The notes under the pieces were generated by a model. That model worked only from the letters and a program-made list of their open reading frames with translations. It did not search any database and was not told where the DNA came from. Positions 7,320 to 61,014 of a stretch of DNA of 64,000 bases are shown piece by piece. Numbering within the stretch: position 1 is the stretch's first letter; every line of letters starts with the position of its first letter. Source of the stretch: a virus; the IMG/VR virus record IMGVR_UViG_3300036820_000018, positions 1-64,000 of that record. One strand, given 5' to 3'. The translations under genes were made by a program, and so were the position numbers.

Positions 7320-8120
7320 TCAGAGTCCATATTCGTGACGTAGCTGACGCCATCCTGTGAAGTTCCCTCGCTCGACGGGGGTCCTTGCTGGGACGGCGAC
7401 GTGCTCCAGTGGTGACGCGTGAGCGGGCTTGGCAGTGATGAGTCGCCCGAACAAAGCCAGGTCTTCCTCGATATCACGCTTGCCGTCATGGGTGAGATAG
7501 CTGACACGGGCACAACGGGCAGCTGAGACGGCGCACACATGGTGAGGCACTTTGACCGCCTCCCGATCCTCGTGGTCGATATAGGGGAGGTGCCATTCTC
7601 CGGCGCTGACTGGGCGGGGTCGGCTCCTGAAGAGAGCGGCTTGCATCAGTTCGGCAACCGCCCTGATCTCTGGCTGGGCCAGAGGAGAGCACCTCTGAAC
7701 GAAGAAGTTCTCCCACTCAGTGCTCGAGACGATGACTGTGTGCCACATGAAGGGCTCAAGAAGACGGTTGGTGACCGACTTGTGGACACCCATGAGTGAG
7801 AGCGTCGTGGCTGCACTGACAGCATGGTCCCGGGCCTGGAGCCAAAACTCCTCGGCCAGCTCCCGCTTCTCGACCTCCTCGCCTCCCTGCATCCCCTTCT
7901 GCTCAAGCGGGAAGGTAAGAGGTATGGCTGGGTCGTCCATCACCCGAGCGATTTGCTTCTTCACTGGGATGGCTCGAGAGGAGGCTGAGTTCCTCGAAAA
8001 CACCCGGTGGGTGTTGAACTCGGCTAGCACGAACCGATGGATCTTCACCTCCATCGTGGTGAGCCGATCGCCCCTTTCACTGATCGAGTCACATATGACC
8101 TTTGCCTCGGGGATACTCAC
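7320..8120 (-). CDS. thyX: FAD-dependent thymidylate synthase
   Basis: 266 residues. Makes dTMP from dUMP using methylene-tetrahydrofolate, NADPH and FAD. The ThyX signature region reads THRVFSRNSASSRAIP near residues 37-52, a phage-type variant of RHRxxSxNxxSxR. The C-terminal part has ARVSYLTHDGK and HASPLEHVAVP followed by NFTGWRQLRHE, the usual dUMP-binding end. It overlaps the ERF gene by ATGA and supplies dTTP for phage DNA synthesis. Confidence 0.9.
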   Translation of the reverse strand: MSIPEAKVICDSISERGDRLTTMEVKIHRFVLAEFNTHRVFSRNSASSRAIPVKKQIARVMDDPAIPLTFPLEQKGMQGGEEVEKRELAEEFWLQARDHAVSAATTLSLMGVHKSVTNRLLEPFMWHTVIVSSTEWENFFVQRCSPLAQPEIRAVAELMQAALFRSRPRPVSAGEWHLPYIDHEDREAVKVPHHVCAVSAARCARVSYLTHDGKRDIEEDLALFGRLITAKPAHASPLEHVAVPARTPVERGNFTGWRQLRHEYGL

Positions 8121-9028
8121 GCGTCCTCGTCCTTCTGCTCCGCCAGCAACACCTCGATGACCGCTGAGGCCTGCCGTTTAGTCAAGTCAGTTGACGACTC
8201 GATGCTGATCCCGATGATCTCTTCGCAGCGTGCGAGCCTCACGCTTCTCTCGGTGTCCCCGAATAACTTCTGGATCATCCCTATCTGCTTCTCGGTCGCA
8301 GCGTTGGGGTCTGCCGGTGCTTCAGTCTTGGCAGGAGCAACCCCTGATCTCGCTTCCTGGAGCCTCAAACGCATTTGCGGCACCGTTCCCCCTTGCTCTA
8401 GTCCAGCGGCTCCTAGGGCCTCTGAGAGGGCTCTAGCCGACATCGTGGCGACGTCATCGTCTTCGGCTAACGCACGCGAGCCGGGATCTTGGGAGTTTGT
8501 CTCTTGGGGCTTGGGGCGGTTCGGGGCTCGGCGCGTGGTCGTGCCCTTCGATCCCCCGTCGTTCTCGACTGTCGTGCCATCGGCGTCGTCTTTCGGGTCC
8601 GCGATGAGGAGCATGTCGAGGAGCAGGTACTTAAATGCTTGGGTTGCCGCCTTGTTGAAGCCCTTGTCACTGTTGTCGCGACCGATGCCGAGGGTCTGAG
8701 CCTCGACTAGGTCAGCGACTCCACCAGGCCCGTAGATCTTCCAGTGGATCTCGATCTTCTCGTCCGTCCACGTGGCTCCTGATTTGACCTGGAACTCTCG
8801 GGTCTCGACCGGCACGGTCTTCCACGGGATCGGCACGACGCAGTACTTGGCGAAGAGGCCCTGCGCTTCTGCGGTGATCTCCTCGATGCCTCGGTAGGGG
8901 TAGCTCACCCCCTGTCCATCAGTCGTCGGGTGTTTCTTCTTCGCGATCGCCGGCAAGTCCTCCATGATCCGAGCTAGTGCCTGGATCACGTCGGTGGGCA
9001 TCGCCCTGTCAGTTGTTTCGTCAGTCAT
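8117..9028 (-). CDS. erf: ERF-family single-strand annealing protein
   Basis: 303 residues. N-terminal ERF domain: YPYRGIEEITAEAQGLFAKY near 40-60, VEAQTLGIGRDNSDKGFNKA and AFKYLLLDMLLIADPKDD near 105-150, the typical ERF run. A Pro/Ser/Asn-rich linker follows, then a C-terminal helical part with a LSEALGAAGLEQGGT SAP-like stretch and a TEKQIGMIQKLF helix seen in phage recombinases. ATG follows GAAAGGGAACC. Works with the RecB-like nuclease gene upstream (ATGA overlap) in homologous recombination. Confidence 0.85.
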   Translation of the reverse strand: MTDETTDRAMPTDVIQALARIMEDLPAIAKKKHPTTDGQGVSYPYRGIEEITAEAQGLFAKYCVVPIPWKTVPVETREFQVKSGATWTDEKIEIHWKIYGPGGVADLVEAQTLGIGRDNSDKGFNKAATQAFKYLLLDMLLIADPKDDADGTTVENDGGSKGTTTRRAPNRPKPQETNSQDPGSRALAEDDDVATMSARALSEALGAAGLEQGGTVPQMRLRLQEARSGVAPAKTEAPADPNAATEKQIGMIQKLFGDTERSVRLARCEEIIGISIESSTDLTKRQASAVIEVLLAEQKDEDA

Positions 9029-36677: not shown

Positions 36678-38201
36678 TTAGGCCAGTCCTGCGGCGATGT
36701 TCGTCAGGACGCCCATAACCGGCGCGGCCCGATTCTCAAAGGCCGTGATCGACCTGATTTCAAAGTCGTATCTCGGACCACCGTTAGCGGTGCCCTGTGC
36801 GATCCGCGACGCTCCGTAGTCGAAGCGCCAGAAGTCGATCAGGGTCTCGACGCTCAAAGAGGTCGAGATGTTGGCTCCCGGGAACGGGACCTCGTCGACG
36901 ACAGCGACGATCTGACCTGGGGGAAGGTGCGGCTGGAGCTCCAAGGTGATGGGCTTGCCGTTCACCGTCTTGTTCAGGTAGATCGCGACCGCACCACCGG
37001 CCACCATGCGAGCACGGCCCGATGAGTCAGTCGGGACCAACCACGTCACGGCCTGTGGGTTGTCCAACAGGGCATTCGCGATGTCGTTGATCGACTGAGA
37101 CCCCATCAAGAGTCGCGTCGGGGTGAGCTGGTAGGTGTCGTAGATAGCCCGGTTCATGACGTCGATCTGCTCGATCGCCGCACCCTGCACGCTCAGCTGG
37201 GCTCCGTCGAGGGACTGGTAGTACGCCCCTTGTGTGGTGCCTGTGCCTGGGGTGATGAGGTTGGTGAACGTCAGGCCGTTACCAAGCTGGTCGGGCTGAG
37301 ACGCGTAGTCCCCGAGGATCGAAGCCGTGAGGCCGTTCATCCAGTAGGACTGGTAGGACACATCTGCGGTCGGCACAGAAGTCGGCCCCTGCAGCCCGGA
37401 GTTGTAGATCCCAGACAGTGAGGGAACGTTCTGAGCAACCGTCGGGATGGCCGTGATCGTCACGGTGTTGGTCGTGGTCGTGGTGTAGTAAAACTCCGCA
37501 CCCGACGAAGACCCGACGTACCAGTCATAGGCCGCAGCACCCTTGACAGCAGTCACCAATCCGGCCACTGAGGCCGTTGAGCCTGTGGTCGCCTGTGACG
37601 CCTCAGAGGAAGCAACCTGGGAACCGCCTCGGTAGTAGTTCACTCCCGAGCGTGCAGCCACCTTGACGTAGACCGTCGCTGAGCCTGAGATCGTCCCGCC
37701 CGTGGTCGACGCAGCAAGCGTCGGGGTGGCGATCGTCGGCAGAGCGAAGTTCTGCGCGTTGAGCTGGTGGATGTCCATACCGATCAGCACCTGGTTGATC
37801 GTCTGCATGGTGTCTACAGCCAAGGCATCCGCGTACCCCTGGGCAGTGGCGAGCGCGTCTTCAGACACCGTGCCACCGAGGGCCAGAGGAACGAACTGGC
37901 TCGCGAGGTACTGGTTCTGGATCTTGACGAGCGCACCGGCCTGCTCAAAAGGCGTACCGATGTCGGGCTGGAGGTTGTTGATGTTGAGCAGGGTCTGCCA
38001 GAAAGCGAACCTTGCGCCTTGGTCGGCCCCGTGTCGGGGAGTCGAGTTGAAGAAGGGCGTGTCGACCGGTACCAAGCTGTAGAGCTTGGGGTCGAGCATC
38101 ACACCCGCGATGCCTGTTCCGGTCGTGATGCCGTTCGTGGCGGCCTTGACCATCGACAGTGTTTCCTCGGTTATCCCGAGGGTGTCGGATCCCCAAGACA
38201 T
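36678..38201 (-). CDS. major capsid protein with inserted Ig/FN3-like domain
   Basis: 507 residues. AGGAGACCCCC precedes ATG. HK97-type features: helical start, a long arm (PVDTPFFNSTPRHGADQG), an A-domain-like part (LDGAQLSVQGAAIEQIDVMN, LMGSQSINDIANALLDNPQA) and the final LIDFWRFDYGASRIAQGT. Residues about 158-262 form an extra beta domain (TISGSATVYVKVAARSG, YDWYVGSSSGAEFYY) that would stick out of the capsid. No delta-domain cleavage site was identified by eye. A small GC hairpin lies upstream at 38265-38280. Confidence 0.85.
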   Translation of the reverse strand: MSWGSDTLGITEETLSMVKAATNGITTGTGIAGVMLDPKLYSLVPVDTPFFNSTPRHGADQGARFAFWQTLLNINNLQPDIGTPFEQAGALVKIQNQYLASQFVPLALGGTVSEDALATAQGYADALAVDTMQTINQVLIGMDIHQLNAQNFALPTIATPTLAASTTGGTISGSATVYVKVAARSGVNYYRGGSQVASSEASQATTGSTASVAGLVTAVKGAAAYDWYVGSSSGAEFYYTTTTTNTVTITAIPTVAQNVPSLSGIYNSGLQGPTSVPTADVSYQSYWMNGLTASILGDYASQPDQLGNGLTFTNLITPGTGTTQGAYYQSLDGAQLSVQGAAIEQIDVMNRAIYDTYQLTPTRLLMGSQSINDIANALLDNPQAVTWLVPTDSSGRARMVAGGAVAIYLNKTVNGKPITLELQPHLPPGQIVAVVDEVPFPGANISTSLSVETLIDFWRFDYGASRIAQGTANGGPRYDFEIRSITAFENRAAPVMGVLTNIAAGLA

Positions 38202-38286: not shown

Positions 38287-39900
38287 CTAGCTGATGCCAG
38301 AGCTTGCTTTCACCGCAGCGATGGCCTGTGGGTAAGGCATCCCTCGCGCGTGAAGCCGCTCGACAACCTTTGCGTGCTCGGTTGACCGGTTCATGACGGC
38401 CTTCTGGAGCTCGTAAGGGTCATTGCCCTTCTCAGCCTCAGTGACCTTGTCGTCGAGAGCCTTGAATACCGAAGTTTCACTTGATGCTGCTGCACGCAGG
38501 GCGGCCACTCCACCCATTGCGTTGATGCCGGCCTGGTTGAGCACGGGGAGGGCTTGGGGCTGGCTGGCCATTTTCTGGAGCAGCTCGTTGCCTTCCAGCA
38601 CCGACTTCGCCAATGCTTCAAAAGCGCCAGGTGCCGCCTTCGCTGCCTGCTTGGCAGCCTTTGCAACACGCTTCGCTTCGAGCTTCGCGGCGAACACGGG
38701 GTCAGTCTTCGCCTTCTCGGCCATCGCCTCTTCATCCTTGGCGTTGGCCTTTTCCTTCATCTTCATCTTCTTCTTCTCTGCTTTGGCTTCGGCGGCCTTG
38801 CGCTCTGCCTTCTGGGCCCGACGAGCTTCGTCGCGCTCGTCCAGAGCCTTGAAAAGCTCGTCAACCTGCATGTCCTCTATCTCCTTGGTAGTTACGGATT
38901 GAGGAGGCAGGCCCAGAATGCGCCTTGCCTCGGGAACTGATATCGCCTGGCTTTTAACGAGCAGGGCAACAGCCTCTGCTTTCGCCTGGCTTTCCTTAGA
39001 AGCAGAAGGGGACTTCTCCTCTGCCTTTTCACGCTGAGCCAGTTCGTCGATTAACTCACCGGCTTCATCTGCGAGATTTGCGTCGTGCTTCTCCCATTCG
39101 GCATCGCCGGGGGACTTGCGAGCGTTGTGCTCGGTCTGTGTCTTGGCCTCTGATTCGGCCTTCGCGTCGTCCGCGTCACCGTCAGGAGCCGGGTCACCTC
39201 GACCGTCGCCTTCTTTGAAGGACTTACGGGAGTTCGCTCGAGTTTGAGACTTCGCCTCGTTGAGAGGGAGTGTCTTGTTCGGAGCAGTCGATCCGTGTCC
39301 TTCACCGTCTGCTGTGGGAGCGGGGTGGCCCTCGAAGGCGACGTGCATGGTTCCGAAGCCCTCGCGGGTCACGTCCATGTGCACAGCGCCCATGTGCGGG
39401 TGGTTCTCTCGGGTCTGCTCGTCTGAGGGGCGCGAGACCCCACCGTCTTGGTGGGATTCCTGGGATGCCCCTTCCTTCTTAGCGTCTCCCTCCCCGATGT
39501 CGGGGTAGCGACGGTGGACAGCGGCCTTGATCTTTGACTGCTGTTCAGGAGAGGCGTTGTGCAGCATTGACAGAGCAGCGCGAGCGTGGTTCTCGTCGTG
39601 GATCGGATACTCGCGAGAGTCGGGCAGAGCAAAAGCTGACTTAGGGAGGGCGTTGCGGGCCTTGGCCTTGAGCTTCGCCTTCTCGACAAGAGTATCGAAG
39701 TCGCTGAACTGCTCTTTGCAGGCGAGGCATTTGGACTCTCCGCAGAAGCCATCGAAGCGAGCTTTCTTCAACTCGTCCTTGCCGACCTCATCGACTGTGG
39801 CCGCAGCTTTGGCAAGCAACCCCGGAAACCCGCTCGCGCCTTCCTTGACCAGGTGAAACTCGTCTGGATCGAGATCTGTGAACTCGGTCATGATGGTCAT
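38287..39900 (-). CDS. scaffold-like protein with DUF6582-type segment
   Basis: 537 residues, Lys/Ala/Glu-rich and mostly helical. Short Cys-pair region CGESKCLACKEQF; the segment FALPDSREYPIHDENHARAA followed by LSMLHNASPEQQ matches the DUF6582 region seen next to XkdF-type proteases. A long charged coiled coil (residues about 330-440) and the C-terminal helices fit a scaffold removed during capsid maturation. ATGA-coupled to the protease-like gene; followed by the capsid gene. Confidence 0.65.
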   Translation of the reverse strand: MTIMTEFTDLDPDEFHLVKEGASGFPGLLAKAAATVDEVGKDELKKARFDGFCGESKCLACKEQFSDFDTLVEKAKLKAKARNALPKSAFALPDSREYPIHDENHARAALSMLHNASPEQQSKIKAAVHRRYPDIGEGDAKKEGASQESHQDGGVSRPSDEQTRENHPHMGAVHMDVTREGFGTMHVAFEGHPAPTADGEGHGSTAPNKTLPLNEAKSQTRANSRKSFKEGDGRGDPAPDGDADDAKAESEAKTQTEHNARKSPGDAEWEKHDANLADEAGELIDELAQREKAEEKSPSASKESQAKAEAVALLVKSQAISVPEARRILGLPPQSVTTKEIEDMQVDELFKALDERDEARRAQKAERKAAEAKAEKKKMKMKEKANAKDEEAMAEKAKTDPVFAAKLEAKRVAKAAKQAAKAAPGAFEALAKSVLEGNELLQKMASQPQALPVLNQAGINAMGGVAALRAAASSETSVFKALDDKVTEAEKGNDPYELQKAVMNRSTEHAKVVERLHARGMPYPQAIAAVKASSGIS

Positions 39901-40358
39901 GCGACGCTCCTTGTAACTCGGGCGAGGGATTCAGGGCTGGCTTCGTCGACGAGGCAGGCTCCCTGGATCGAACCTGACCCCCAGACACCGACTTCGACCT
40001 CTTCCCAGGTCTTCTGGGTGCAGATGACCCCGATGAGCCAATCGCCCTCTTCGATCTTCTGTTCTGATCCGTCGATCGCTTTCATCACCCAAGGGACTGA
40101 GTTGCGGTAGACGTAGTTCTCGACAACCTTGAAGGCGTCTTCACCACCAGGCTTGTGGCCGGTGCCGCCCTTGAATCCGTTGGCCGCAAAGCGCCAGCAG
40201 GCTTTCTCGACTACTCGGGGGGACGCGAGGTCAATCCGACCGTCAGCACCCTTACGAGGCATCTTGTTGGGGCTGTAGCCGACCATCAGCAAGAACCGGT
40301 CAGGCGATCCCTCAGGCGCGAAGACTTTCTTCAGGTTCAGCTTGTTCTTCTTCGACAC
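39897..40358 (-). CDS. XkdF-like prohead protease/scaffold component
   Basis: 153 residues. WVMKAIDGSEQKIEEGDWLI followed by GVICTQKTWEEVEVGVWGSG and SIQGACLVDEAS is the XkdF-type pattern, where a Ser protease-like fold precedes the scaffold. Here it is a separate protein just before the scaffold ORF. A catalytic Ser cannot be fixed by eye. Overlaps the previous gene by 47 bases. Confidence 0.6.
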   Translation of the reverse strand: MSKKNKLNLKKVFAPEGSPDRFLLMVGYSPNKMPRKGADGRIDLASPRVVEKACWRFAANGFKGGTGHKPGGEDAFKVVENYVYRNSVPWVMKAIDGSEQKIEEGDWLIGVICTQKTWEEVEVGVWGSGSIQGACLVDEASPESLARVTRSVA

Positions 40359-41350: not shown

Positions 41351-41704
41351 TCAGTCTGGTGAAATCGTCTTCCAGGGGACCAAAACGGTCGTCGGAGAGT
41401 CGTGCATAATCTGAGCGGTGCCTGCGGAGTTGTCTATCAAGACGGCGACATTGTGCTTTGCGCAATAAGCGGCTTTTGCCTTTCCCGGAGGATTGACAAA
41501 GACCTTCAACTTGTCGTAATGACCTTTCATCCCTAAGCCAGCGAGCTTTTCTTTCTTCATTTTCTTTTCGGCTTTGGTGACCGGTAAAACGTGGCTCCCG
41601 CTTAGCACCGTGACTTTGTGCCCGTGCTTATGAAGCTTTCTCATGAGCTCCCGGATGGCCGGGCTGGAATCGAGCGTGCCATCCAAATCGCACGCAATCT
41701 TCAT
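41351..41704 (-). CDS. HAD-like phosphatase
   Basis: 117 residues. Starts with the catalytic DLDGTLDSS (Asp7, Asp9), then VTVLSGSH (motif II Ser), a Lys-rich cap-like stretch, and AVLIDNSAG (motif IV). Small HAD enzymes remove phosphate from nucleotides or polynucleotide 3' ends. In this genome it lies three genes after an ORF with a 2H phosphoesterase and a Nudix hydrolase, so three phosphate-ester enzymes cluster in the head module. Confidence 0.72.
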   Translation of the reverse strand: MKIACDLDGTLDSSPAIRELMRKLHKHGHKVTVLSGSHVLPVTKAEKKMKKEKLAGLGMKGHYDKLKVFVNPPGKAKAAYCAKHNVAVLIDNSAGTAQIMHDSPTTVLVPWKTISPD

Positions 41705-42045
41705 GGAGTTAGCTCGCCATTAGTGATCCAACCGTGCCAATGTGACCCGTCTCGGTAGGACTGGCCATTCTCATCGACACGCCAGCACTCCACGTCGATC
41801 GAGGGGATGACCGTCAGGTTCGGAGCAGTGCCTGAGACGTCCCACATGCCGTGTGGAGGGGCTGCAGCAGCGTCAGTTGTTCGCCACGAGATCCGACTGG
41901 GAAGACCGGGCTCAATGGGCTTCGTGTTCGGCAGGACGATCCACCAACACTCTCGACCGTCTTTGTCACCGGACTCGTAGCGCCACATCATCCCCGGCTC
42001 TTCGTCCTCAGGAAAAGGTTTGTCGACAATGCGAAGTGCAGTCAT
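41701..42045 (-). CDS. hypothetical protein, 114 residues
   Basis: ATG 42045 in an ATGA overlap with the MuF gene. Trp-rich (MMWRYESGDKDGRECWWIVL, HGMWDVSG, VECWRVDENG, SHWHGWI). Compact beta-fold look. Unrecognised; between MuF and the HAD gene. Confidence 0.6.
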   Translation of the reverse strand: MTALRIVDKPFPEDEEPGMMWRYESGDKDGRECWWIVLPNTKPIEPGLPSRISWRTTDAAAAPPHGMWDVSGTAPNLTVIPSIDVECWRVDENGQSYRDGSHWHGWITNGELTP

Positions 42046-42743
42046 CGCTGGCTCCTGGCCGGCGCGACTGAGCATCGGCACCGAGGGTGGATCGGAGGCA
42101 TCGCTGAAGCGTCCGAGATCGGGTGTGGGTTGGCGTCTTTGATGTCCACGCACACAGGACAGGCTCCGACGTGGTTGAGCAGATCGAACATCGCGATACC
42201 TGCACGCTTAAACAGGTCGACCGAGGCCGTGGTCATGGCCCTGTTGACCTCTGTCCTCGATATCAGGGCCGCTCTGTCAGGGTCATTGATCAGTAGACCG
42301 ATCTGTTCAGCCAACTCGGTGACGTCTGCGTCGGTCCAAGGGACGTGAGCGACCCGTCCGGCGACGAAGGCCTCGACCAGAGAGACGATGAGGTCCCTTG
42401 TGTGGTCAGAGATGCCCTTTATCAGGCCTCCGAGTTGCTGAGAGACGTTCTCGAGGCCCGGAACAGTCCCATGTACCCGTCCGGGTGCCCACGCGGACCA
42501 GTCAACGGCGTTCACGGCGCCTTCGAGGGCGTCCCCAGTGGCCTTCTGAACGCTTACACCGTGTCCAGAGGCATCTTTGGCTCCCGCAAGCCATGAATCG
42601 GCCCACAGACGCTCTAGGGCGGTCCTGAGAGGCCCTGTGTCGAGCGGTATCGAGGCTATGAGGCTCTCGATGACCCCTCCGGGGGTTCCGACTGGGCCTG
42701 TGATCCCTTCGACGCGTTGAGCGATCTGTCTCGGGCGCACCAA
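42042..42743 (-). CDS. MuF-type minor head protein
   Basis: 233 residues from TTG 42743, but the frame is open upstream without a start to the portal gene. SRTEVNRAMTTASVDLFKRA and ACPVCVDIKDANPHPISDAS followed by PPIHPRCRCSV are the hallmarks of the Mu gpF/SPP1 gp7 domain. A -1 frameshift at 42830-42836 would fuse it to the portal polyprotein. MuF proteins sit on the portal and can enter the cell with DNA. Confidence 0.82.
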   Translation of the reverse strand: MVRPRQIAQRVEGITGPVGTPGGVIESLIASIPLDTGPLRTALERLWADSWLAGAKDASGHGVSVQKATGDALEGAVNAVDWSAWAPGRVHGTVPGLENVSQQLGGLIKGISDHTRDLIVSLVEAFVAGRVAHVPWTDADVTELAEQIGLLINDPDRAALISRTEVNRAMTTASVDLFKRAGIAMFDLLNHVGACPVCVDIKDANPHPISDASAMPPIHPRCRCSVAPARSQR

Positions 42744-42820: not shown

Positions 42821-45800
42821 TCAGGACACTTTTGGGCGGTTCACCTCGGCTTTGACGATCATCACCGTGTCGCCGGGTTCTAGGGGCTCAGGGAGGATCA
42901 GACGGCCTGAGTAGTCGATCGTGGCCTTCTGAGCTTGCTCCAGGATTGGCTCTAGGACCTCGAGGCCTTCACGGACCTTGTCGCGGATGACCTTGTCGTC
43001 GAGATCGTCGGTGTCCCACCAAGAGACTGCCGCGATCTCGTCTCCGTCAGGCTCCCCGAGGGAGACATCGTCCTCAGAGTCCGTCGAGTAGACGAAACCC
43101 TGGAAGATCCCGTCGTCTGAGCGCCAGGTGCCAACCATCTTCGCGTCGGTGGGCATCTTGCAGCCCGTCTCTTCGGACCATTCACGCACAGCTGCGTCGT
43201 GAGCCGACTCGCCATCGTCTAAGTGGCCAGCTGGTGTCTCCCAAGAGGCTCCATTACCGTCATCGTCTTTGTTGCCGCGACGGACGAGCAGAACCTTGCC
43301 TGAGTCTCGAGCGACGAGAGCAACTCCAGCGACTTCGGGACCCTTGGAGTCGTGAGCCTTAGCGGCCCCGCCGAAGGCGAAGACCCGGCACTCGTCTCCG
43401 CGGTGGACCGAGAGATGGGTGAAGGTGACAGGCGTGGGCGGGATCGGAGCCGGGAGATCTTCGTTGGAGTCCATGTACGCGAGCGTCATATGCGGATGAA
43501 AGTCGCTGTGCTGGCTCCCGTTGAACTGCTCGAGAGGTCCGCGAAGGGCTTCGATGCCCGGGATCTCGGGCTTAGCCCAAACCGGAATTAGCCAGTCACT
43601 CGACTCAGAAGCAGGGAAGGTACCCCGGCCACCGATAGTGCCTGACATTGGTCCACGCTGGGCGCTCGCGACTCTGGCAGCTACCGCACAGATCTTCTCG
43701 AAGGTGGCGTCATCAGCGATCTTGCCGCAGTAGACGATCGTGATGTGCTGGTCGGGGACCCCATTCTCCATCACCGGGATCAAGCCAGGGGGAACGTCGA
43801 GGGAGACCATCGTTGAGACCGGAGAATGCACCCCAGCCGTTGCCTTAGCGAAGGCCGCGTCAACCTCTTCGCGGGTTGTGGCCTTAGACAGCTCTGTCCA
43901 GACCGCGTCATAGACCCGTGTGGAAATCGCTGAGTTGTCGAAGTGACGCGGGAGGTCGTTCTTGGCGACGCGCTTTTGTGAGGCACGCTTCCAGCGCTTT
44001 AGGTCGAGCTTCTCTTCGATCTCGTCTTCAGGATCGTCGGGGTCCTCTGCGTAGTGAGCGCCCGCGATACCTGTCGCGATCCCGATCCCAGCGGTTGCCT
44101 CTTTAAGAGTCCTTCTCGACGCCGTTCCCTGATCTACGCGTCCGGGGGCTGCGGACCCGCGCGGTCTGGCGGGATTGGACCCGTTGGACGCGGCGGGCTT
44201 CTTTGCGCCCACTAGCGGTGCGGTCGGTGCTGGAGTTAGTGGGCCGGGGCCGAGTGGCCCCCCCACTTTTGGGCGTGCCGGGACCTTTCGCCCAGCGGCC
44301 GTGTCGTGCTGCCTCGCCTGGCTGTAGGCAGGAGGACCTGGAGCATCGGGATCTGGGCCCGGGGTGCCGGGAAGGACGAGCTCGATCGGCCGAACGGTCC
44401 CTGGACGTGGGGCTCCGGTCAAGGGGTCCACGTCTCCCGCGACACCGAGCAGGTAAGAGATCGGGATCGGGCCGAGGCGGTTCGAGTCGAAGAACCTCGG
44501 CACCTTCTCCTCGGGATTGATCGGGTAACCCAGGACCTTGTCTCTGACTTCGTCAGGAGACTCTGCGCCGATCGAGACGTAGATCTGGTGAGACTGCGCC
44601 TCCATGAGGCGGTCTTCCTTCTCGCGACCGGTGTCGAAGCGGAGCTGCACCGGGAGACCGAGGTCCTCCTGGGTGATCGCGTCCATGATGTCTTCGTAGT
44701 AGCCGACGTGGGGAAGTGAGTTGATCCTGAACTGCGTGTCCATCTGGGTGTCAGAGGTGCTGCGGTTCACGTCGTCGGTGAAGCCGAGGTCCTGGGGCAT
44801 CATCATGAATGCACCTGTAGTCCGGCGCATCACGTACTCAGCGATGTCAGGGTCGAACTGCTGCGGCTTGTAAAACTCGATCTCGGTGCCGTGAGGCAGC
44901 CATCTGAGCCCCCAGCGCTCTGACTGGTCCCCGTAGGTCCAGTCGTTGTAGTCCTCTTGCCATTCAGCAAGAGAGTCAGGGTCTGACTGGTCCTCGGGAG
45001 CCATCGCGAAGGCCTCAGGGACGTTGCCCGTGGTGAAGAACTGCAAGAAGTAGGTCTGGAGGCGCAGGTCGGTGTTCGCGTTGACCAGGACCGTCTCGAT
45101 CGGTGCGATGCCATAGGGGTCCTCTGTATGAGGCCACATGGGCTCGTAGATCAGGTCCTCAGATCTCAGCCAGTCCCAGGGGATTCCTTGGATGAACTGC
45201 TGGAAGGCCGGAGCCTCGCCGATCGGCTCTGCACCGAAGTAGTCAAGCATCGGGGCGAAGAGCGTCCCGTCGGCTACAGGCAGGCTGATCAGGCGACCTG
45301 CGCGATCACGCTGACGGTAAAGGGTCCCGCAATCGAAGCGCCAGACGTCGGTCGCGTGCTTGCAGAGCCAGTTACGAAGCGTGTTGCCCGAGCCCGCGAT
45401 CACCTTGCCCGACTCAGGGTCGAGCCTCTTGTCGGGGCGACGCCAGAACTCTTTAGCGGCCGCGATCTCTTTGACGCAGTTCTCCTCGTACCCGTCCATG
45501 ACCTCGAAGCGCACTCGCATCGAGCGGAGGTCTTGGATCGCGTGGCGGTAGCAGATGGTCGCCACGTCGTAGGAGGTGATCAGGTGCCGGATCGTCTCGA
45601 AAGGCATCCGGCCAGGGCGCGTCTGGGTCGAGATGTTGCGCCCGGTGTCGTAGTCGCGCTCTCTCGGCCTGCGATTGTAACCGAAGTACGGGGTCAGTGG
45701 CCTGCCTGGGGCAAATGGCGAGACCCAGTCAATGCCCTGCTCGTGCAGAGCGTTTTCGATCTCGATCGGGGTGATCGTGGACCCCGAGGGATTGATCGAG

Positions 45801-46057
45801 TTAGCTGTCTGGCGAGCGAGCACCTGGGCAGAGACGGGCTTTGAGCGAGCAAGGTGAGCCGTGGTTCCTGACTGTGCGCCCTGGACGTTCCAGACCGAGT
45901 TGTTGCGCAGGGCCTTCGCGACGAGATCGACCTCGCGACGTTCTCTCGGACGCAGGTCCATAAGGGCCAGGTCGTTTTTCGCGACCTTGATGGCCTTGGC
46001 CACGGTCTCAGAGTTGTCCCGTGGGGCGCGCAGACGCTCAGTCAACCTCAGAGCCAT
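42821..46057 (-). CDS. portal protein fused to 2H phosphoesterase and Nudix hydrolase
   Basis: 1078 residues from ATG 46057, which overlaps the terminase TAA. Residues about 1-560 are a portal (WVSPFAPGRPLTPYFGYN, IIRH-like TIRHLITSYDVATICYRH, WLRSEDLIYEPMWPHTEDPY, ALMMPQDLG-type GAFMMMPQDLGFTDDVNRS). A Pro/Gly-rich linker (560-650) and a helical segment follow. Then a 2H domain with QHITIVYCG (His771, Thr773) and HPHMTLAYM (His856, Thr858), and a Nudix box GHLDDGE...REWSEETG at 944-965, fully matching GX5EX7REUXEEXGU. Catalytic residues of both enzymes are intact. Ends at a frameshift site. Confidence 0.88.
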   Translation of the reverse strand: MALRLTERLRAPRDNSETVAKAIKVAKNDLALMDLRPRERREVDLVAKALRNNSVWNVQGAQSGTTAHLARSKPVSAQVLARQTANSINPSGSTITPIEIENALHEQGIDWVSPFAPGRPLTPYFGYNRRPRERDYDTGRNISTQTRPGRMPFETIRHLITSYDVATICYRHAIQDLRSMRVRFEVMDGYEENCVKEIAAAKEFWRRPDKRLDPESGKVIAGSGNTLRNWLCKHATDVWRFDCGTLYRQRDRAGRLISLPVADGTLFAPMLDYFGAEPIGEAPAFQQFIQGIPWDWLRSEDLIYEPMWPHTEDPYGIAPIETVLVNANTDLRLQTYFLQFFTTGNVPEAFAMAPEDQSDPDSLAEWQEDYNDWTYGDQSERWGLRWLPHGTEIEFYKPQQFDPDIAEYVMRRTTGAFMMMPQDLGFTDDVNRSTSDTQMDTQFRINSLPHVGYYEDIMDAITQEDLGLPVQLRFDTGREKEDRLMEAQSHQIYVSIGAESPDEVRDKVLGYPINPEEKVPRFFDSNRLGPIPISYLLGVAGDVDPLTGAPRPGTVRPIELVLPGTPGPDPDAPGPPAYSQARQHDTAAGRKVPARPKVGGPLGPGPLTPAPTAPLVGAKKPAASNGSNPARPRGSAAPGRVDQGTASRRTLKEATAGIGIATGIAGAHYAEDPDDPEDEIEEKLDLKRWKRASQKRVAKNDLPRHFDNSAISTRVYDAVWTELSKATTREEVDAAFAKATAGVHSPVSTMVSLDVPPGLIPVMENGVPDQHITIVYCGKIADDATFEKICAVAARVASAQRGPMSGTIGGRGTFPASESSDWLIPVWAKPEIPGIEALRGPLEQFNGSQHSDFHPHMTLAYMDSNEDLPAPIPPTPVTFTHLSVHRGDECRVFAFGGAAKAHDSKGPEVAGVALVARDSGKVLLVRRGNKDDDGNGASWETPAGHLDDGESAHDAAVREWSEETGCKMPTDAKMVGTWRSDDGIFQGFVYSTDSEDDVSLGEPDGDEIAAVSWWDTDDLDDKVIRDKVREGLEVLEPILEQAQKATIDYSGRLILPEPLEPGDTVMIVKAEVNRPKVS
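42830..42836 (-). promoter_or_regulatory. -1 ribosomal frameshift site CCCAAAA
   Basis: In the portal frame the codons are CGC CCA AAA GTG TCC TGA, giving a canonical C_CCA_AAA heptamer six bases before the stop. After a -1 slip the frame reads CCC AAA AGT GTC and runs without stop into the MuF ORF, adding SFHTPKIAKGIRRLVRP. A GCCCG/CGGGC hairpin lies about 9-10 bases downstream of the heptamer. Frameshift not proven. Confidence 0.7.
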
Positions 46058-47631
46058 TAGCCCACCTTTACGGGAGGTGCGACCTCCTCGGGACTTGCTT
46101 GACACCACACGCAGTAGGTGCGATCGGGATTCCAGCGGTGGTCACAGATCATCCGAGCACGCTTGCGCTCTGAACGAACGCCTTGGCGACGACGGGCCAT
46201 CCGGCGCTCCATGCGAGCCTTGTCATCGAGGATCGCCTCCTCACCTCGATGCTCTAAGCGCTGGGCTGCGTCACGTTCCATGAACTCTCTGAAGTTCGCC
46301 CCGACTCCACCTTCGGAGGTGATGAGGAGGTAGCATCCCATCCCGATGGTGACCGCTTGGTCGTCGTGACCACCTCTTGTGTGATCGAGGCGTGTGACAC
46401 CTGGGGAGGACTCTTTGAGCTTTAGGGCGAGAAGCTCTTCTTTCAACTCTCGAGTGTTCGGGATGAAGATTTGGCGGTTCCTGAAGGTGCTCGTGAGAGC
46501 GCTCGCGACCTCACCGACTGAGGAGGCCGTGAACTTGAACTCTTTGGCCCGCACGCCTCTGCGGTTGAGACGCTGCACCCCGTCAACGAACTGCTGAGGG
46601 TCGGCGTGAGCGTGTGCCCGGTTGTACCGAAAGGATGCCTCGACGATCCAGTCAACCACCCTGTCGATCTGAACGGGCTTCTTCTTCGATCCCCTCCAGC
46701 GCTCGACGTGGTCGACGACGACGCGCTTGGGACCTCTCGGGGCCTTGGGGTCGTAGGGCTCCTTGTGCATGATCGTCATGACCGTGGCGTCGTTCACCAC
46801 ACCGATGTCAACGAGGATTATGTACTTAACGCCCTTTTGCGGATCGAGGGTCGTATACGGCTGAGCGGCTGCTTCCCAGTCCTCTTCGCGGATAGCTGCG
46901 TCTTCGTCCTCTGACCAGAGGTTGAGGACCAGGCGGTCGTATTCAGAGGGACGAAGCTGGAAGCGCAATGAAGCGAGCTCGTCGGGACTCAGCCAAGGGA
47001 CCGGGCCGGGGACTTCGTGGACTCGCCACATCTTGTCCACCGAGCACTTGTCGATGACCTCTTTGGACCAGTGAGAAGGCTCGCCGGCCGAGCTCATCAC
47101 CACGAGCTTGCAGTTAGGGACCTTCGGAGCAGCTGATTGGAGGGCCGACCATACGCGTCGCGCTCCACGAGTGTCTGGCCACTGACAGAACTCGTCAGCT
47201 ACTAAGAAGTGAGCGTCGCGCAGGCCCCAGGACCCTGAGTCTGACTGGGCCAGGACGCGGATCCATGCGCCGTTCGGAGCAACGATGCGCTGGCTCTCGA
47301 CGATGATCGCACCTTCGAGCTCTTCGGTACGGGCTACAAAGCCCGCTGCGGCGTCGATGATGATCGCGGCCTGATTAGTCGAGGCAGCGACGATGTGACC
47401 GTTAGCGAGGGGCCTGGCGTCTGTCATGAGCCAGGAGAGGCCGAGACCAGCGATGTCCGTCGATTTTGAGGCACCTCTTGCTCGGGTGAGGAAGTGCCAC
47501 GTCGCTGCGGGGCGCTCGTTTAAGAGGATGGCTTCGGCGTCGGTCTTCTGGAAGGACCTCGCTACCTCACCCCAGCGGTCTCCGGTTTCGACCCGGAGCC
47601 CATACATGAGGTCTAGGGCGCCCTCACTCAC
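46057..47631 (-). CDS. terL: terminase large subunit
   Basis: 524 residues. ATPase: LTRARGASKSTD (Walker A variant), HFLVADEFCQW (Walker B with Asp-Glu) and a VVMSSAGE coupling motif. Nuclease: ILVDIGVVNDAT (first Asp), AHADPQQFVDG and THTR-like DHTRGGHDDQAV (last Asp pair). The C-terminus adds CDHRWNPDRTYCVWCQ, a likely zinc knuckle. Pumps DNA into the prohead and cuts it. GTGA-type overlap with the small subunit gene. Confidence 0.92.
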   Translation of the reverse strand: MSEGALDLMYGLRVETGDRWGEVARSFQKTDAEAILLNERPAATWHFLTRARGASKSTDIAGLGLSWLMTDARPLANGHIVAASTNQAAIIIDAAAGFVARTEELEGAIIVESQRIVAPNGAWIRVLAQSDSGSWGLRDAHFLVADEFCQWPDTRGARRVWSALQSAAPKVPNCKLVVMSSAGEPSHWSKEVIDKCSVDKMWRVHEVPGPVPWLSPDELASLRFQLRPSEYDRLVLNLWSEDEDAAIREEDWEAAAQPYTTLDPQKGVKYIILVDIGVVNDATVMTIMHKEPYDPKAPRGPKRVVVDHVERWRGSKKKPVQIDRVVDWIVEASFRYNRAHAHADPQQFVDGVQRLNRRGVRAKEFKFTASSVGEVASALTSTFRNRQIFIPNTRELKEELLALKLKESSPGVTRLDHTRGGHDDQAVTIGMGCYLLITSEGGVGANFREFMERDAAQRLEHRGEEAILDDKARMERRMARRRQGVRSERKRARMICDHRWNPDRTYCVWCQASPEEVAPPVKVG

Positions 47632-48068
47632 GAAGAAGAGGCGCGCAACGCTCGCCCGTTTGCCCTCAGACGGTCTATCTGGTTGATCGAGGAGGCGCTG
47701 AAGGCCATCGACATCGACTGGTCCTTCATCAGAGCAGCGCGACCAGAGGGGGAGAGGCCGAGGCGGTCAACACACTTCATGGCGTTTGTCTCAGCCTGGG
47801 TGGCTGCCTGCCAGACGTAGGGCTTGACCTTGGCGGGTCCGTACTTCTCAGCGGTGGCCATCGCCCAGTTGTGAAGCATCCGGGCTCGTGCTTCTGCGCG
47901 ACAGAACTGCATCACGGCGGCTTCGTCGGAGTCGAGGAGCCAGGGGTACTTGCCGATCAGCTCGTCTAGTACCTCTTGAGCGTGGAGACCGACGAGGACT
48001 TCGTTGTTCGCCCCGTGTCCTGTGTTGGTCCGACTGATGGCTACGACGACTTCGGCTTGGTCTGGCAC
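47628..48068 (-). CDS. terS: terminase small subunit
   Basis: 146 residues from GTG 48068 after AGGGGGTGTCAA; an ATG 15 codons upstream would span the rightward promoter. AATQAETNAMKCVDRLGLSP followed by SGRAALM is the P27-like small terminase signature. Binds the packaging site and starts packaging. Start of the long leftward late operon. Confidence 0.82.
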   Translation of the reverse strand: MPDQAEVVVAISRTNTGHGANNEVLVGLHAQEVLDELIGKYPWLLDSDEAAVMQFCRAEARARMLHNWAMATAEKYGPAKVKPYVWQAATQAETNAMKCVDRLGLSPSGRAALMKDQSMSMAFSASSINQIDRLRANGRALRASSS

Positions 48069-48098
48069 TTGACACCCCCTGGGGGCCGATCTAATACT
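48069..48098 (+). promoter_or_regulatory. sigma-70-type promoter for the rightward regulator gene
   Basis: Perfect -35 TTGACA at 48069-48074, 18-base spacer, -10 AATACT at 48093-48098. It touches the GTG start of the small terminase gene on the other strand, so the two directions may interfere. Confidence 0.55.
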
Positions 48099-48127
48099 TT
48101 CATCAATACCCAATGACTAGGACGGGA

Positions 48128-49446: not shown

Positions 49447-49526
49447 TGGTAGCGGAGGCAGGATTTGAACCTAGCGATTTCCGGCTTATGAGGCCAGCGG
49501 GGACGACCAGACTCCCCTACTCCGCA
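49447..49526 (-). tRNA. tRNA-Met(CAT)
   Basis: 80 bases with an encoded CCA end. Acceptor arms TGCGGAG/CTCCGCT pair except 1:72 (T-T). D stem GGGG/CCCC, anticodon stem CTGGC/GCCGG with loop CTCATAA (anticodon CAT), T arm with TTCAAAT loop. The three G-C pairs of an initiator tRNA are absent, so an elongator Met or an Ile2-type tRNA is likelier despite the 1:72 mismatch. Lies between two minus-strand gene groups. Confidence 0.85.
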
Positions 49527-55092: not shown

Positions 55093-55274
55093 CCCTCTGC
55101 GAGGCTTGCAGGAACTACGAACACGCTGAGTGTCTCGAACCTGTCGCGACGCGCATGGAGCACGACACGGGCTATCACATCGTCCTCGTGTGCTGCTGTG
55201 GAATGCACGACATCTTCGCTGCTCAGTCTGAGGCAGCCATAGAACGAGCAGAGGTGGCACGAGATGGCTACTAG
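55089..55274 (+). CDS. small Cys-rich protein, 61 residues
   Basis: GTGA overlap. LCEACRNYEHAECL and VCCCGMHDIF form a probable zinc site; His/Glu-rich. Overlaps the RuvB-like gene by 11 bases. Confidence 0.6.
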   Translation: MTLCEACRNYEHAECLEPVATRMEHDTGYHIVLVCCCGMHDIFAAQSEAAIERAEVARDGY

Positions 55275-56385
55275 AGGCCTCATCCGATCAATCAAGGGCC
55301 GAAGCCCTACTCAACCGAAACCCAGACCTCAGGTGCAGAACCTCGAGGACTTACGAGCCTGGGCGAGGGAGCAGGCTGCGGCTAGACCAGCGGAACCCGC
55401 CCCCTCGTCAGACCGGGCCGTCTCCGTCCAGGAACCTACCCCAAGCGTCAGAGATCGACCCACCGCTATCTCAGACATGGTCGGACAGAAGGCGCTTGTG
55501 GGGCAACTCAGGCTTATCTGTGCCGGTTCGATCTTGCGAGGGACCCCTATGCCGCACTGCCTGATAACGGGCCCTAGCGGGCATGGGAAAACGACCTTGG
55601 CTTCGATCATTGCGAATGAGATCGGAGCCCACCTGGTCTGTACGAATGGGATGCTGTTGCGCCGGCCTGGGGACCTCGTCGGGCTTCTCGTGAAGATGCG
55701 CCCTAACTCAGCCTTACTGGTGGACGAGATCCATAGCCTGCCTAAGCCCGTCGCTGAGGTGCTTTACGAGGTGCTCGAGGACGGGAAGCTCTCGACGCTT
55801 GTCGGTAGTGGTGCTGAGACTGTGGCCGTCACACATCAGATGGAAGGGTTCGTCTGCATAGGAGCGACGACGAGGCCCGGACTCTTGAGCGCCCCCTTTC
55901 GTGGTCGCTTCGGGTTCGTGGGTCAGGTCGACCCGTACTCAGCTGACGAGTTGGCCGAGATCGTCACTAAGGCTTGGCAACGCGCTGGGGTCGAGGCATC
56001 TGAAGGTGAGGCTCTCGCGGTAGCTACTAGATGTCGCTACGTGCCACGCAGAGCCCTTCATTTGGCCGAGAGAGTCTTGGACTGGACATCGGTCGCCGGG
56101 ATAGACGGCGTGCCCTCTGGGACCGTCTCAGCGGCTCTGGCAGCCTTTGGGATTGACGAGCTCGGACTAGACGGCAACGACTGGCGAGTGCTCGCGGCAC
56201 TGACCCAAACCTTTTCAGGGCGCACCGTCGGACTCGACGCTCTAGGTTCTGCGCTCGACATGGACGCGGCCAGCATCGAGAACGAGATAGAGCCCTACCT
56301 GATTCAGAGCGGGTACATCTCGCGAACCAAGTCGGGTCGGATGGGTCTACCCCTCGCGTATGAACTATTCAGGGAGACAGCATGA
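55264..56385 (+). CDS. ruvB: RuvB-like Holliday junction ATPase
   Basis: 373 residues. After an 60-residue polar N-terminus: TAISDMVGQKALVGQLRLIC, Walker A GPSGHGKTT (103-111), Walker B LLVDEIHSLP (151-160), sensor 1 IGATTRPGLLSAPFRGRFG (199-217, with the Arg finger region), lid helices (YVPRRALHLAERVL) and a winged helix with EIEPYLIQSGYISRTKSGRM. All match bacterial RuvB. No RuvA, RuvC or other resolvase is seen, so it must use host RuvA or act alone, perhaps in replication or recombination restart. Confidence 0.85.
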   Translation: MATRGLIRSIKGRSPTQPKPRPQVQNLEDLRAWAREQAAARPAEPAPSSDRAVSVQEPTPSVRDRPTAISDMVGQKALVGQLRLICAGSILRGTPMPHCLITGPSGHGKTTLASIIANEIGAHLVCTNGMLLRRPGDLVGLLVKMRPNSALLVDEIHSLPKPVAEVLYEVLEDGKLSTLVGSGAETVAVTHQMEGFVCIGATTRPGLLSAPFRGRFGFVGQVDPYSADELAEIVTKAWQRAGVEASEGEALAVATRCRYVPRRALHLAERVLDWTSVAGIDGVPSGTVSAALAAFGIDELGLDGNDWRVLAALTQTFSGRTVGLDALGSALDMDAASIENEIEPYLIQSGYISRTKSGRMGLPLAYELFRETA

Positions 56386-60156: not shown

Positions 60157-61014
60157 TCACGACTCGATTGTGTAGAGAGCCGCGTTAGGAGCCTCGTGGT
60201 GGATCTGGTCAGTCACGTCAGTCGCGAGCCAGCTCCCGGTCCCCTTGGGGTTCTTGAACACAAGCAGGTGTCCCTCGTTGTTGGGGACAGTGCTCACGCC
60301 GGCGACGTACGCATTTCCCTCTGAGTCAAATGTGACTGTCGGTGCCATGTCCTTGATCTCCTCTGGTATCGGGGGAAAGGGTGGTTTGGGCGTCGGGGGC
60401 TTAGGGACGATCTTGGGCCATAGCCCGTCGTAGTTCCAGGCCCCGAAGCGAGTGACGTTGTTAACGACCTCGTCGATGTCTACCTGCTTGCCCGCGATGT
60501 AAGTCGGGTTGGCGAGCTGTAGGAGGTCCGCGAAGCGAGAGACCTGACCGTTAGACCAGGCTTCTGTCTGCCAGTAGTAGCACTGAACGAGGTCTTCATC
60601 CGCAGCTTCGTTGACGATCAGGATTCCCCCATAGGGACCTCCGACGTAACCCGACTCCGCGACGACAGACCTGAAAGCTCGTAGGTAGTCCAGACAGACG
60701 CTTATTTGGGCCTGTGAGACGTCAAAGTCAAAGGCGACGTAGATAGCTGAACCAGGGGGTTGGCCGAGCGCACGAGCGAAGGCAGCGGCCCCCACACCGT
60801 CTGCCATGCCCTGAGCAGCGCCACCTAAGGCAGCTTGAGCTTGATCCTCCCAGACCGTGACGATGCCCATGCCTGCTTCGGTGTAGCCGTTGGCCTCTGC
60901 TCGAGTCAGAGCCTTCCCGTTAGGCAGTGAACAGGCGTAGCGGCAAACGAAGAAGATCCCCGCCTCTAGGAGCTCGGCGGGGGTAGGACCGCTTTCAAAG
61001 TCGCAGCCCTTCAT
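60157..61014 (-). CDS. endolysin, DUF1906 glycoside-hydrolase-like
   Basis: 285 residues. Residues 1-200: KGCDFESG at the start (active-site Asp), FFVCRYACSL, VTVWEDQAQAAL (Glu), AIYVAFDFDVSQ and GGPYGGILIVN, then YYWQTEAWSNG and QVDIDEVV. This is the DUF1906/Rv2525c-like TIM barrel found in actinophage lysins. A Pro-rich linker (KPPTPKPPFPPIPEEI) leads to a small C-terminal beta domain for wall binding. Degrades peptidoglycan for release. Confidence 0.82.
   Translation of the reverse strand: MKGCDFESGPTPAELLEAGIFFVCRYACSLPNGKALTRAEANGYTEAGMGIVTVWEDQAQAALGGAAQGMADGVGAAAFARALGQPPGSAIYVAFDFDVSQAQISVCLDYLRAFRSVVAESGYVGGPYGGILIVNEAADEDLVQCYYWQTEAWSNGQVSRFADLLQLANPTYIAGKQVDIDEVVNNVTRFGAWNYDGLWPKIVPKPPTPKPPFPPIPEEIKDMAPTVTFDSEGNAYVAGVSTVPNNEGHLLVFKNPKGTGSWLATDVTDQIHHEAPNAALYTIES

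What the first reader, a model, noticed from the sequence alone, without database searches (positions are those of the whole stretch)
42821..46057. Portal protein fused to a 2H phosphoesterase and a Nudix hydrolase
One open frame carries a portal, a Pro/Gly linker, a 2H domain with both HxT motifs (His771/Thr773, His856/Thr858) and a complete Nudix box (944-965). A twelve-copy portal would bring twelve copies of two nucleotide-phosphate enzymes into the virion. 2H enzymes such as Acb1 destroy cyclic nucleotide signals of CBASS, and Nudix enzymes can remove NAD-derived or capped nucleotides. An injected or virion-borne counter-defence is a plausible reading; RNA or nucleotide repair is the alternative. 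The fusion is seen; the role is inference.
Basis: partly seen in the sequence, partly recalled or inferred. Interest (0 to 1): 0.85.

Follow-up and report, generated by a model that had tools for sequence, protein, structure and literature searches.

The report
Phage portal carrying swappable enzymes
A phage of (probably) actinobacteria carries two nucleotide-cutting enzymes on the tail end of its DNA-portal protein. Related phages swap such enzymes in and out of the same place, which suggests an interchangeable cargo that the phage loads into its head; fusions of this kind are known, but how the cargo would be released and what it does are still open.

Summary
On the MINUS strand, 42821-46057, one intact frame (1078 aa) encodes portal, Pro/Gly linker, a short "KRW" segment, a 2H domain (HIT771-773, HMT856-858) and a Nudix domain with a complete box. 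Pfam, PDB profile searches and confident AlphaFold models support both enzymes. A colinear relative (L195/L111) matches on both sides but has a second Nudix where the window has 2H, so the fusion is not an assembly join.
2H and Nudix fusions to portal/MuF, with the same injected counter-signalling idea, were published in 2017 and 2022 (PMC5512222, PMC9503650). The two together in one portal is a rarer variant. New here: the enzymes are interchangeable cassettes. In 71 portal-selected relatives, 43 have Nudix only, 7 2H only, 2 both and 19 neither; the pair arose at least four times, so it is not a conserved two-step pathway. The 2H resembles LigT/CPDase more than Acb1. A [VI]xK[AS] motif is enriched at payload borders, at the capsid-protein N-terminus and in scaffold-position genes, but not in controls. 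I read it as a prohead-protease cut motif that frees the enzymes inside the head (inference; untested).

The parts
42821..46057 (-). portal-2H-Nudix protein, 1078 aa plus stop (ATG start; alternative GTG start at 46108)
44423..45784 (-). portal domain, residues 92-545
   Evidence: Pfam/PHROGs; 83-85% identical to L111/L195 and 72% (best segment against the family query) to an Actinomycetes MAG locus L191
44018..44422 (-). Pro/Gly-rich linker, residues 546-680
   Evidence: 29% P+G in residues 521-690
43841..44017 (-). conserved short 'KRW' segment, residues 681-739 (LKRWKRASQKRV...PRHFDNSAIS...AF), present also in relatives with no payload
43357..43840 (-). 2H phosphoesterase cassette, residues ~740-900
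   Evidence: Pfam, A4 against PDB, AlphaFold pLDDT 93 and Foldseek; 70-71% identical cassette in L031/L236
43739..43747 (-). first HxT motif, HIT 771-773
   Evidence: both HxT/S motifs in 87 of 87 homologous 2H domains
43484..43492 (-). second HxT motif, HMT 856-858
42923..43357 (-). Nudix domain, residues 901-1045
   Evidence: Pfam E 5.5e-19; AlphaFold pLDDT 87 and Foldseek
43160..43228 (-). Nudix box, residues 944-966 (GHLDDGESAHDAAVREWSEETGC)
   Evidence: REXXEE kept in 12 of 12 portal-selected Nudix homologues
43842..43849 (-). GCTAAGGC, 5' copy of an 8-bp direct repeat at the 2H cassette border (encodes AKA, K738)
43356..43363 (-). GCTAAGGC, 3' copy of the repeat (encodes AKA, K900)
42042..42743 (-). 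MuF-like minor head protein (separate gene here, fused to the portal in many relatives)
   Evidence: Pfam Phage_Mu_F E 1e-3, PHROG minor head E 5.5e-12, 34% identical to the MuF part of Sonali gp3
39897..40358 (-). XkdF-type (S78_2) prohead protease
   Evidence: Pfam E 3.4e-10
38287..39900 (-). probable scaffold (position between protease and capsid gene; rich in K-A motifs)
   Evidence: position
36678..38201 (-). major capsid protein; conserved xKAxTxG motif near its N-terminus (here SMVKAATNG, K19)
   Evidence: 41% identical to annotated major capsid protein of Arthrobacter phage Sonali; motif match in 57 of 59 homologues
46057..47631 (-). terminase large subunit
47628..48113 (-). terminase small subunit

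Best explanation
This is a head protein made like a polyprotein. The N-terminal half is the portal. Behind a flexible linker and a short 'KRW' segment lies a cargo site that holds exchangeable enzyme cassettes, here a LigT/CPDase-like 2H phosphoesterase followed by a Nudix hydrolase. Because the cargo usually lies between portal and MuF, and the SPP1 portal draws its MuF-type protein into the procapsid interior, it most likely ends up inside the capsid. The XkdF-type maturation protease probably frees the enzymes by cutting at K|A (or K|S) sites at the cassette borders, and they leave with the DNA at infection. In the cell they most likely hydrolyse nucleotide-derived molecules, cyclic-phosphate or 2'-5' linked for the 2H and NDP-X type for the Nudix, that host defences use as signals or leave as damage products. 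Shown: the fusion, intact motifs, predicted folds, conserved gene order, cassette gain/loss/exchange, and motif enrichment. Inferred: location, cleavage, ejection, substrates, role.
For: Both enzymes have intact catalytic motifs and confident folds. Portal-selected relatives, not chosen for their cargo, show the same site empty, with Nudix, with 2H, with both, or with two Nudix domains. On a tree of 80 portals the 2H+Nudix state needs four origins. L236 and its near-identical relatives L254/L120 differ by a clean 2H cassette. Closest relative L195/L111 is 70-71% identical up to residue 739, then has a Nudix where the window has 2H, then matches again at 60%. [VI]xK[AS] against composition expectation: payload linkers 91 vs 15.8, scaffold-position ORFs 241 vs 24.4, capsid-protein first 40 aa 31 vs 1.4; TerL 0 vs 2.9, capsid body 6 vs 8.8, 2H domain 0 vs 1.0; [VI]xR[AS] in linkers 11 vs 23.9. 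K[AS] lies within about 35 aa of the start of 15 of 18 and the end of 15 of 17 2H domains (shuffled means 8.3 and 6.9). Precedents: SPP1 portal draws the MuF-type gp7 into the procapsid (PMC6316719); the SPN3US prohead protease cuts capsid, portal and ejected proteins at one short motif (PMC10052503).
Against: No virion proteomics, activity data or defence assay. The K-A signal does not carry over clearly to other head lineages: six 2H-XkdF fusions show no excess, and 2H borders outside this portal family only a slight one. Some K-A sites, such as the RKA before Nudix and the site inside XkdF, are at homologous positions, so counts are not independent. The window's own 2H-border sites (FAKA, AAKA) lack the V/I two residues before K. 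Some relatives carry no known payload, so the cargo is not needed for head assembly. Substrates cannot be read from sequence.
Confidence: 0.5

Rival explanations
1. Assembly-stage rival: the enzymes stay tethered to the portal and act in the cytoplasm late in infection, destroying signals made when defences sense capsid or portal proteins; packaging is incidental.
For: The gene lies in the late head operon. Staphylococcal Thoeris senses the major head protein and makes gcADPR (PMC11312562). PMC9503650 raises a similar possibility for head-fused ARTs.
Against: K[AS] motifs at the cassette borders suggest release. The cargo also appears fused to MuF in relatives, e.g. L236, so portal tethering itself is not conserved.
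Confidence: 0.2
2. RNA-end repair or nucleotide housekeeping: a LigT-like CPDase opens 2',3'-cyclic phosphates on RNAs cut by host nucleases (or ADP-ribose 1'',2''-cyclic phosphate), and the Nudix trims NDP-X ends or caps; no signal molecule is targeted.
For: Nearest solved relatives of the 2H are RNA 2',3'-cyclic phosphodiesterases, drCPDase and LigT; top Nudix folds include RppH and Dcp2. cRec-Nudix fusions are proposed to degrade 1''-2'' cADPr (PMC9503650).
Against: No RNA ligase, polynucleotide kinase or KptA was found among the window proteins I searched (not every ORF was searched). 2H and Nudix rarely occur together (2 of 71), which does not suit one two-step pathway.
Confidence: 0.22
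3. The domains are structural or regulatory decoration (nucleotide binding) without catalysis.
For: Some relatives lack them, so they are accessory.
Against: Catalytic motifs are kept: both HxT/S motifs in 87 of 87 2H homologues (most found with patterns that fix only one of the two), REXXEE in 12 of 12 Nudix domains found through the portal alone.
Confidence: 0.05
4. Assembly join or frameshift artefact.
For: Single uncultured contig; reads not available.
Against: Continuous frame, even GC, colinear relatives matching on both sides of the 2H, and independent portal-2H, portal-Nudix and portal-Nudix-2H fusions in other contigs.
Confidence: 0.02

Closest known systems
Portal-Nudix-MuF fusion gp3 of Arthrobacter phages Sonali and Mufasa8
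   Same: Same portal family (38-41% identity), linker, Nudix with full box, KRW segment, MuF; XkdF-type protease gene downstream.
   Different: No 2H; Nudix lies before KRW; MuF is fused rather than separate.
2H-MuF/portal and Nudix-MuF/portal fusions of Iyer, Burroughs, Aravind and colleagues (polyvalent proteins 2017, PMC5512222; NAD+-ADPr survey 2022, PMC9503650)
   Same: Same kinds of domain fused to head proteins; same injected counter-signalling proposal.
   Different: The passages I read do not describe both in one portal, exchange at one site, or protease-motif bracketing. Figures are not held, so I could not check their drawings.
LigT/CPDase RNA 2',3'-cyclic phosphodiesterases (drCPDase 5h7e; E. 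coli LigT 5ldi-5ldq)
   Same: Closest fold and sequence profile of the 2H domain; both HxT motifs.
   Different: About 20% identity; here embedded in a portal; substrate untested.
Acb1 anti-CBASS 2H enzyme (7t26, 7t27)
   Same: Same 2H superfamily fold (Foldseek E 3.6e-3, TM 0.53-0.62).
   Different: Not significant by sequence (E 0.06); not the nearest group; Acb1 is a separate small protein.
MuF polymorphic toxins of temperate phages (PMC5576092)
   Same: Variable enzyme attached to a portal-proximal head protein, proposed to be injected.
   Different: Toxin domain is on MuF there, mostly in Firmicutes temperate phages; these payloads are nucleotide hydrolases with no sign of toxicity.

Membership tests
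2H phosphoesterase superfamily | Two HxT/S motifs in a duplicated fold | tested here: met
   HIT771-773 and HMT856-858; fold matched to LigT/CPDase at E 1.5e-6, model pLDDT 93
2H phosphoesterase superfamily | Pfam curated score cut-off | tested here: inconclusive
   PF13563 at 25.4 bits against a cut-off of 27, E 1.6e-5; the related 2H of L031 passes with 32.8
Acb1 anti-CBASS | Significant profile relationship to Acb1 | tested here: not met
   E 0.057 (7t26) and 0.031 (9q2g) with the 45-sequence profile; LigT/CPDase far better
Acb1 anti-CBASS | Hydrolysis of 3'-5' cyclic oligonucleotides | not testable with these tools
   needs enzyme assay
Nudix hydrolase | GX5EX7REUXEEXGU box | tested here: met
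   residues 944-966; Pfam NUDIX 68.9 bits, cut-off 21.1
ADP-ribose pyrophosphatase / NADH diphosphatase Nudix subgroups | Pro about 15 residues after the box (ADPRase) or SQPWPxS (NudC type); signatures from memory | tested here: not met
   sequence after the box is KMPTDAKMVGTWRSDDGIFQG: D at +15, and no SQPWPxS; a weak test
Phage portal (PF04860 type) | Portal domain next to terminase and MuF, with homology to annotated portals | tested here: met
   PF04860 E 3e-6 (below gathering), phrog_2662 E 3e-20, 40% identity to Sonali portal, gene order
Head-packaged payload fused to MuF/portal (polyvalent type) | Effector domain fused to a head protein in the packaging operon | tested here: met
Head-packaged payload fused to MuF/portal (polyvalent type) | Presence in virion and delivery to the host | not testable with these tools
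   needs proteomics and ejection assay
MuF polymorphic toxin | Toxin domain C-terminal to MuF | tested here: not met
   MuF is a separate 233-aa gene without an extension; the enzymes are not known toxin families

The most novel reading that the evidence does not exclude
The portal-to-MuF region of this head lineage is a cleavable cargo polyprotein. Enzyme cassettes flanked by [VI]xK|[AS] cut sites are inserted, swapped and stacked at one site; the XkdF prohead protease frees them inside the procapsid at the same step at which it trims capsid protein and scaffold, and they are ejected with the DNA to disarm nucleotide-based host responses.
Probability: 0.35. Interest if true: 0.75.

Novelty: new variant of a known kind. 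Interest (0 to 1): 0.52.

Why it matters
Portal-fused enzymes raise an obvious question: a portal stays in the empty capsid, so how could its enzymes reach the host? The recurrent K[AS] motif at cargo borders, shared with the capsid-protein N-terminus and the scaffold, gives a concrete and cheap test of an answer. If right, the portal of these actinophages is a natural protein-loading platform with exchangeable cassettes, and the set of cassettes found in a phage would be a readout of the nucleotide-based defences it meets.

Tried and rejected
Single-protein scan of viral contigs with P0001 found no close relative; alignments were needed. 'Specialised two-step 2H+Nudix enzyme' was considered and set aside: the pair is found in 2 of 71 portal-selected loci against 5.7 expected (Fisher p 0.0097, not corrected for phylogeny; the tree-aware pair test is not significant, median p 0.25), and the arrangement differs between cases. 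A conserved 2H-Nudix order was rejected: orders seen are 2H-Nudix (window, L038) and Nudix-2H (L031/L236, L243; L121 and L134 in other head-protein contexts). Acb1 membership rejected. Chimeric assembly rejected. Payload as toxin: not supported by the domain families found. K-A motif as pure DNA-level recombination scar: the 8-bp GCTAAGGC repeat fits it, but V/I enrichment two residues before K in scaffold-position proteins, where no cassette sits, favours a protein-level signal; both may hold. Out-of-lineage test of the motif was largely negative. Pfam on C-terminal extensions after MuF (L006, L010, L009, L021) named no enzyme. No solved structure matches the portal by sequence.
Full report
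OBSERVATION. The window is bases 1-64000 of a 64,671-base IMG/VR virus record. The frame lies on the minus strand, 46057 down to 42821, 1078 aa. It starts at an ATG overlapping the stop of the terminase large subunit. Pfam finds NUDIX (E 5.5e-19), Phage_portal (3.1e-6) and 2_5_RNA_ligase2 (1.6e-5; 25.4 bits against a cut-off of 27); PHROGs agrees. Because the single-sequence 2H hit is marginal, I built a 45-sequence alignment (A4): it matches solved 2',3'-cyclic phosphodiesterases at E 6e-10 to 1.5e-9, and AlphaFold gives a 2H fold at mean pLDDT 93 whose best PDB matches are drCPDase and E. coli LigT. The Nudix model (pLDDT 87) matches DR1025, RppH, Dcp2 and many other Nudix enzymes, so it is safely Nudix but its substrate is not indicated.

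SURROUNDINGS. On the minus strand the order is TerS, TerL, portal-2H-Nudix, MuF, a DUF6527-like gene, a small HAD-like gene, two unknowns, XkdF-type S78_2 protease, scaffold-position gene, major capsid protein. A tape measure and tail genes follow. Relatives are Arthrobacter phages Sonali and Mufasa8 and loci in Actinomycetes MAGs, Streptomyces and Kitasatospora genomes, so an actinobacterial host is likely (inference).

RELATIVES AND MODULARITY. Portal-based searches collect relatives without regard to cargo. In 71 non-redundant, scorable loci the block from portal to MuF holds Nudix only in 43, 2H only in 7, both in 2 and neither in 19. Counting the window and one locus found through its 2H (L038), the 2H+Nudix state occurs four times on a tree of 80 portals and needs four changes, also when only well-supported branches count. 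The closest relative, L195 (same contig as L111), has 85% portal identity and colinear neighbours, and differs in the cargo: identity 70-71% to residue 739, then a Nudix instead of 2H, then a 60% identical Nudix. L191, from an Actinomycetes MAG, has an empty site: KRW runs straight into MuF. L236 and its near-identical relatives L254 and L120 differ by a clean insertion of a 2H cassette between Nudix and MuF; that cassette is 70-71% identical to the window's and begins and ends alike (KATAGxHS ... FGGAxKA), although it sits in another protein. In the window the cassette is flanked by the 8-bp direct repeat GCTAAGGC. Fusions of 2H or Nudix to MuF or to the maturation protease also occur. These are shown facts from sequence; the inference is that the cassettes are moved by recombination between head genes.

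THE PAIR. 2H and Nudix do not attract each other: 2 observed, 5.7 expected (Fisher p 0.0097). A test that allows for relatedness is not significant, so I claim only that there is no sign of pairing. This weakens the idea of a dedicated two-step pathway and favours independent, stackable activities.

RELEASE. In linkers between domains, the dipeptide KA is 1.86 times over-represented (267 vs 143), against 1.09 inside domains, and RA is depleted. With two residues of context, [VI]xK[AS] is enriched 5.8-fold in linkers, 9.9-fold in scaffold-position proteins and 22-fold in the first 40 residues of the capsid protein, where a K-A-x-T-x-G motif near residue 20 recurs (57 of 59 homologues have a hydrophobic-x-K[AS] match there). 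Terminase, capsid body and the 2H domain show no excess. The enrichment inside the Nudix, portal and KRW segments (6.4-, 2.8- and 4.4-fold) may partly reflect profile edges and homologous positions. At 2H borders, K[AS] lies near the start in 15 of 18 cases and the end in 15 of 17 (shuffled means 8.3 and 6.9); at Nudix borders in 42 of 49 and 29 of 49 (17.6 and 14.8); there is little or no such excess at MuF borders. I read this as the recognition motif of the prohead protease, by analogy with the SPN3US protease, which cuts capsid, portal and ejected proteins after one short motif (PMC10052503). Limits: homologous positions inflate the counts; 2H-XkdF fusions of other head lineages show no excess and 2H borders outside this family only a slight one; the window's own border sites are A-K-A without V/I at the second position before K; I found no published cut site for an XkdF protease.

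FUNCTION. Location in the head follows from the portal and MuF neighbours: in SPP1 the portal draws the MuF-type protein gp7 into the procapsid, and gp7 supports initiation of infection (PMC6316719). Action in the host is inference. The 2H is of LigT/CPDase type, so RNA 2',3'-cyclic phosphates, 2'-5' oligonucleotides or ADP-ribose cyclic phosphate are the more likely substrates; cyclic oligonucleotides of CBASS are possible but not indicated. The Nudix lacks the ADPRase and NudC signatures that I remember, a weak negative. Counter-defence, assembly-stage action and RNA repair remain open; I put counter-defence by injected enzyme first because payload exchange with kept catalytic motifs is the pattern expected of an arms race.

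NOVELTY. Fusions of 2H with MuF or portal (PMC5512222) and of 2H and Nudix with MuF, portal and the serine peptidase (PMC9503650) are published with the injected counter-signalling reading. The finding is therefore a variant of a known kind: both enzymes in one portal. What I did not find in the passages read is the common cargo site with clean cassette exchange and the shared putative cut motif.

Noticed in passing
L019:1527-5201; L023:4862-9178; L038:1119-6236; L134:2565-7424; L256:1904-6340: Probable inteins in head proteins: portal domains split by about 400 aa with LAGLIDADG (L019, L023) or a weak intein/polymerase-type match (L038); intein splicing signatures in the protease-Nudix-2H protein L134 and after MuF in L256.
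   Followed up: partly
window 55264-56385 (+): Phage-encoded RuvB-like Holliday junction helicase (RuvB_N E 3e-43, AAA lid and RuvB_C present); RuvA and RuvC were not found in the neighbouring ORFs searched.
   Followed up: no
window 41351-41704 (-): Small HAD-like protein (MKIACDLDGTL...) between MuF and protease, kept in L195, L191, L196 and L236 whatever the payload; role unknown.
   Followed up: partly
L055:3-5465; L058:3-5792; L121:4650-7739; L134:2565-7424: Very long proteins with two 2H domains (L055, L058) or with Nudix plus 2H (L121, L134; L134 also has a proheadase match), from contigs of about 160-175 kb.
   Followed up: partly
L111:2226-5426; L112:471-3278; L198: Portals carrying two Nudix domains in tandem (L112's second copy runs into another frame).
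   Followed up: partly
L006:8551-9333; L010:3676-4458; L009:6541-7212; L021:8131-8862: 220-260 aa extensions after MuF without a clear Pfam family; possible further payload domains.
   Followed up: partly
window 7320-8120, 8117-9028, 60157-61014, 49447-49526: ThyX-like thymidylate synthase, ERF recombinase, Rv2525c-like glycoside hydrolase (possible lysin) and a tRNA-Met gene.
   Followed up: no
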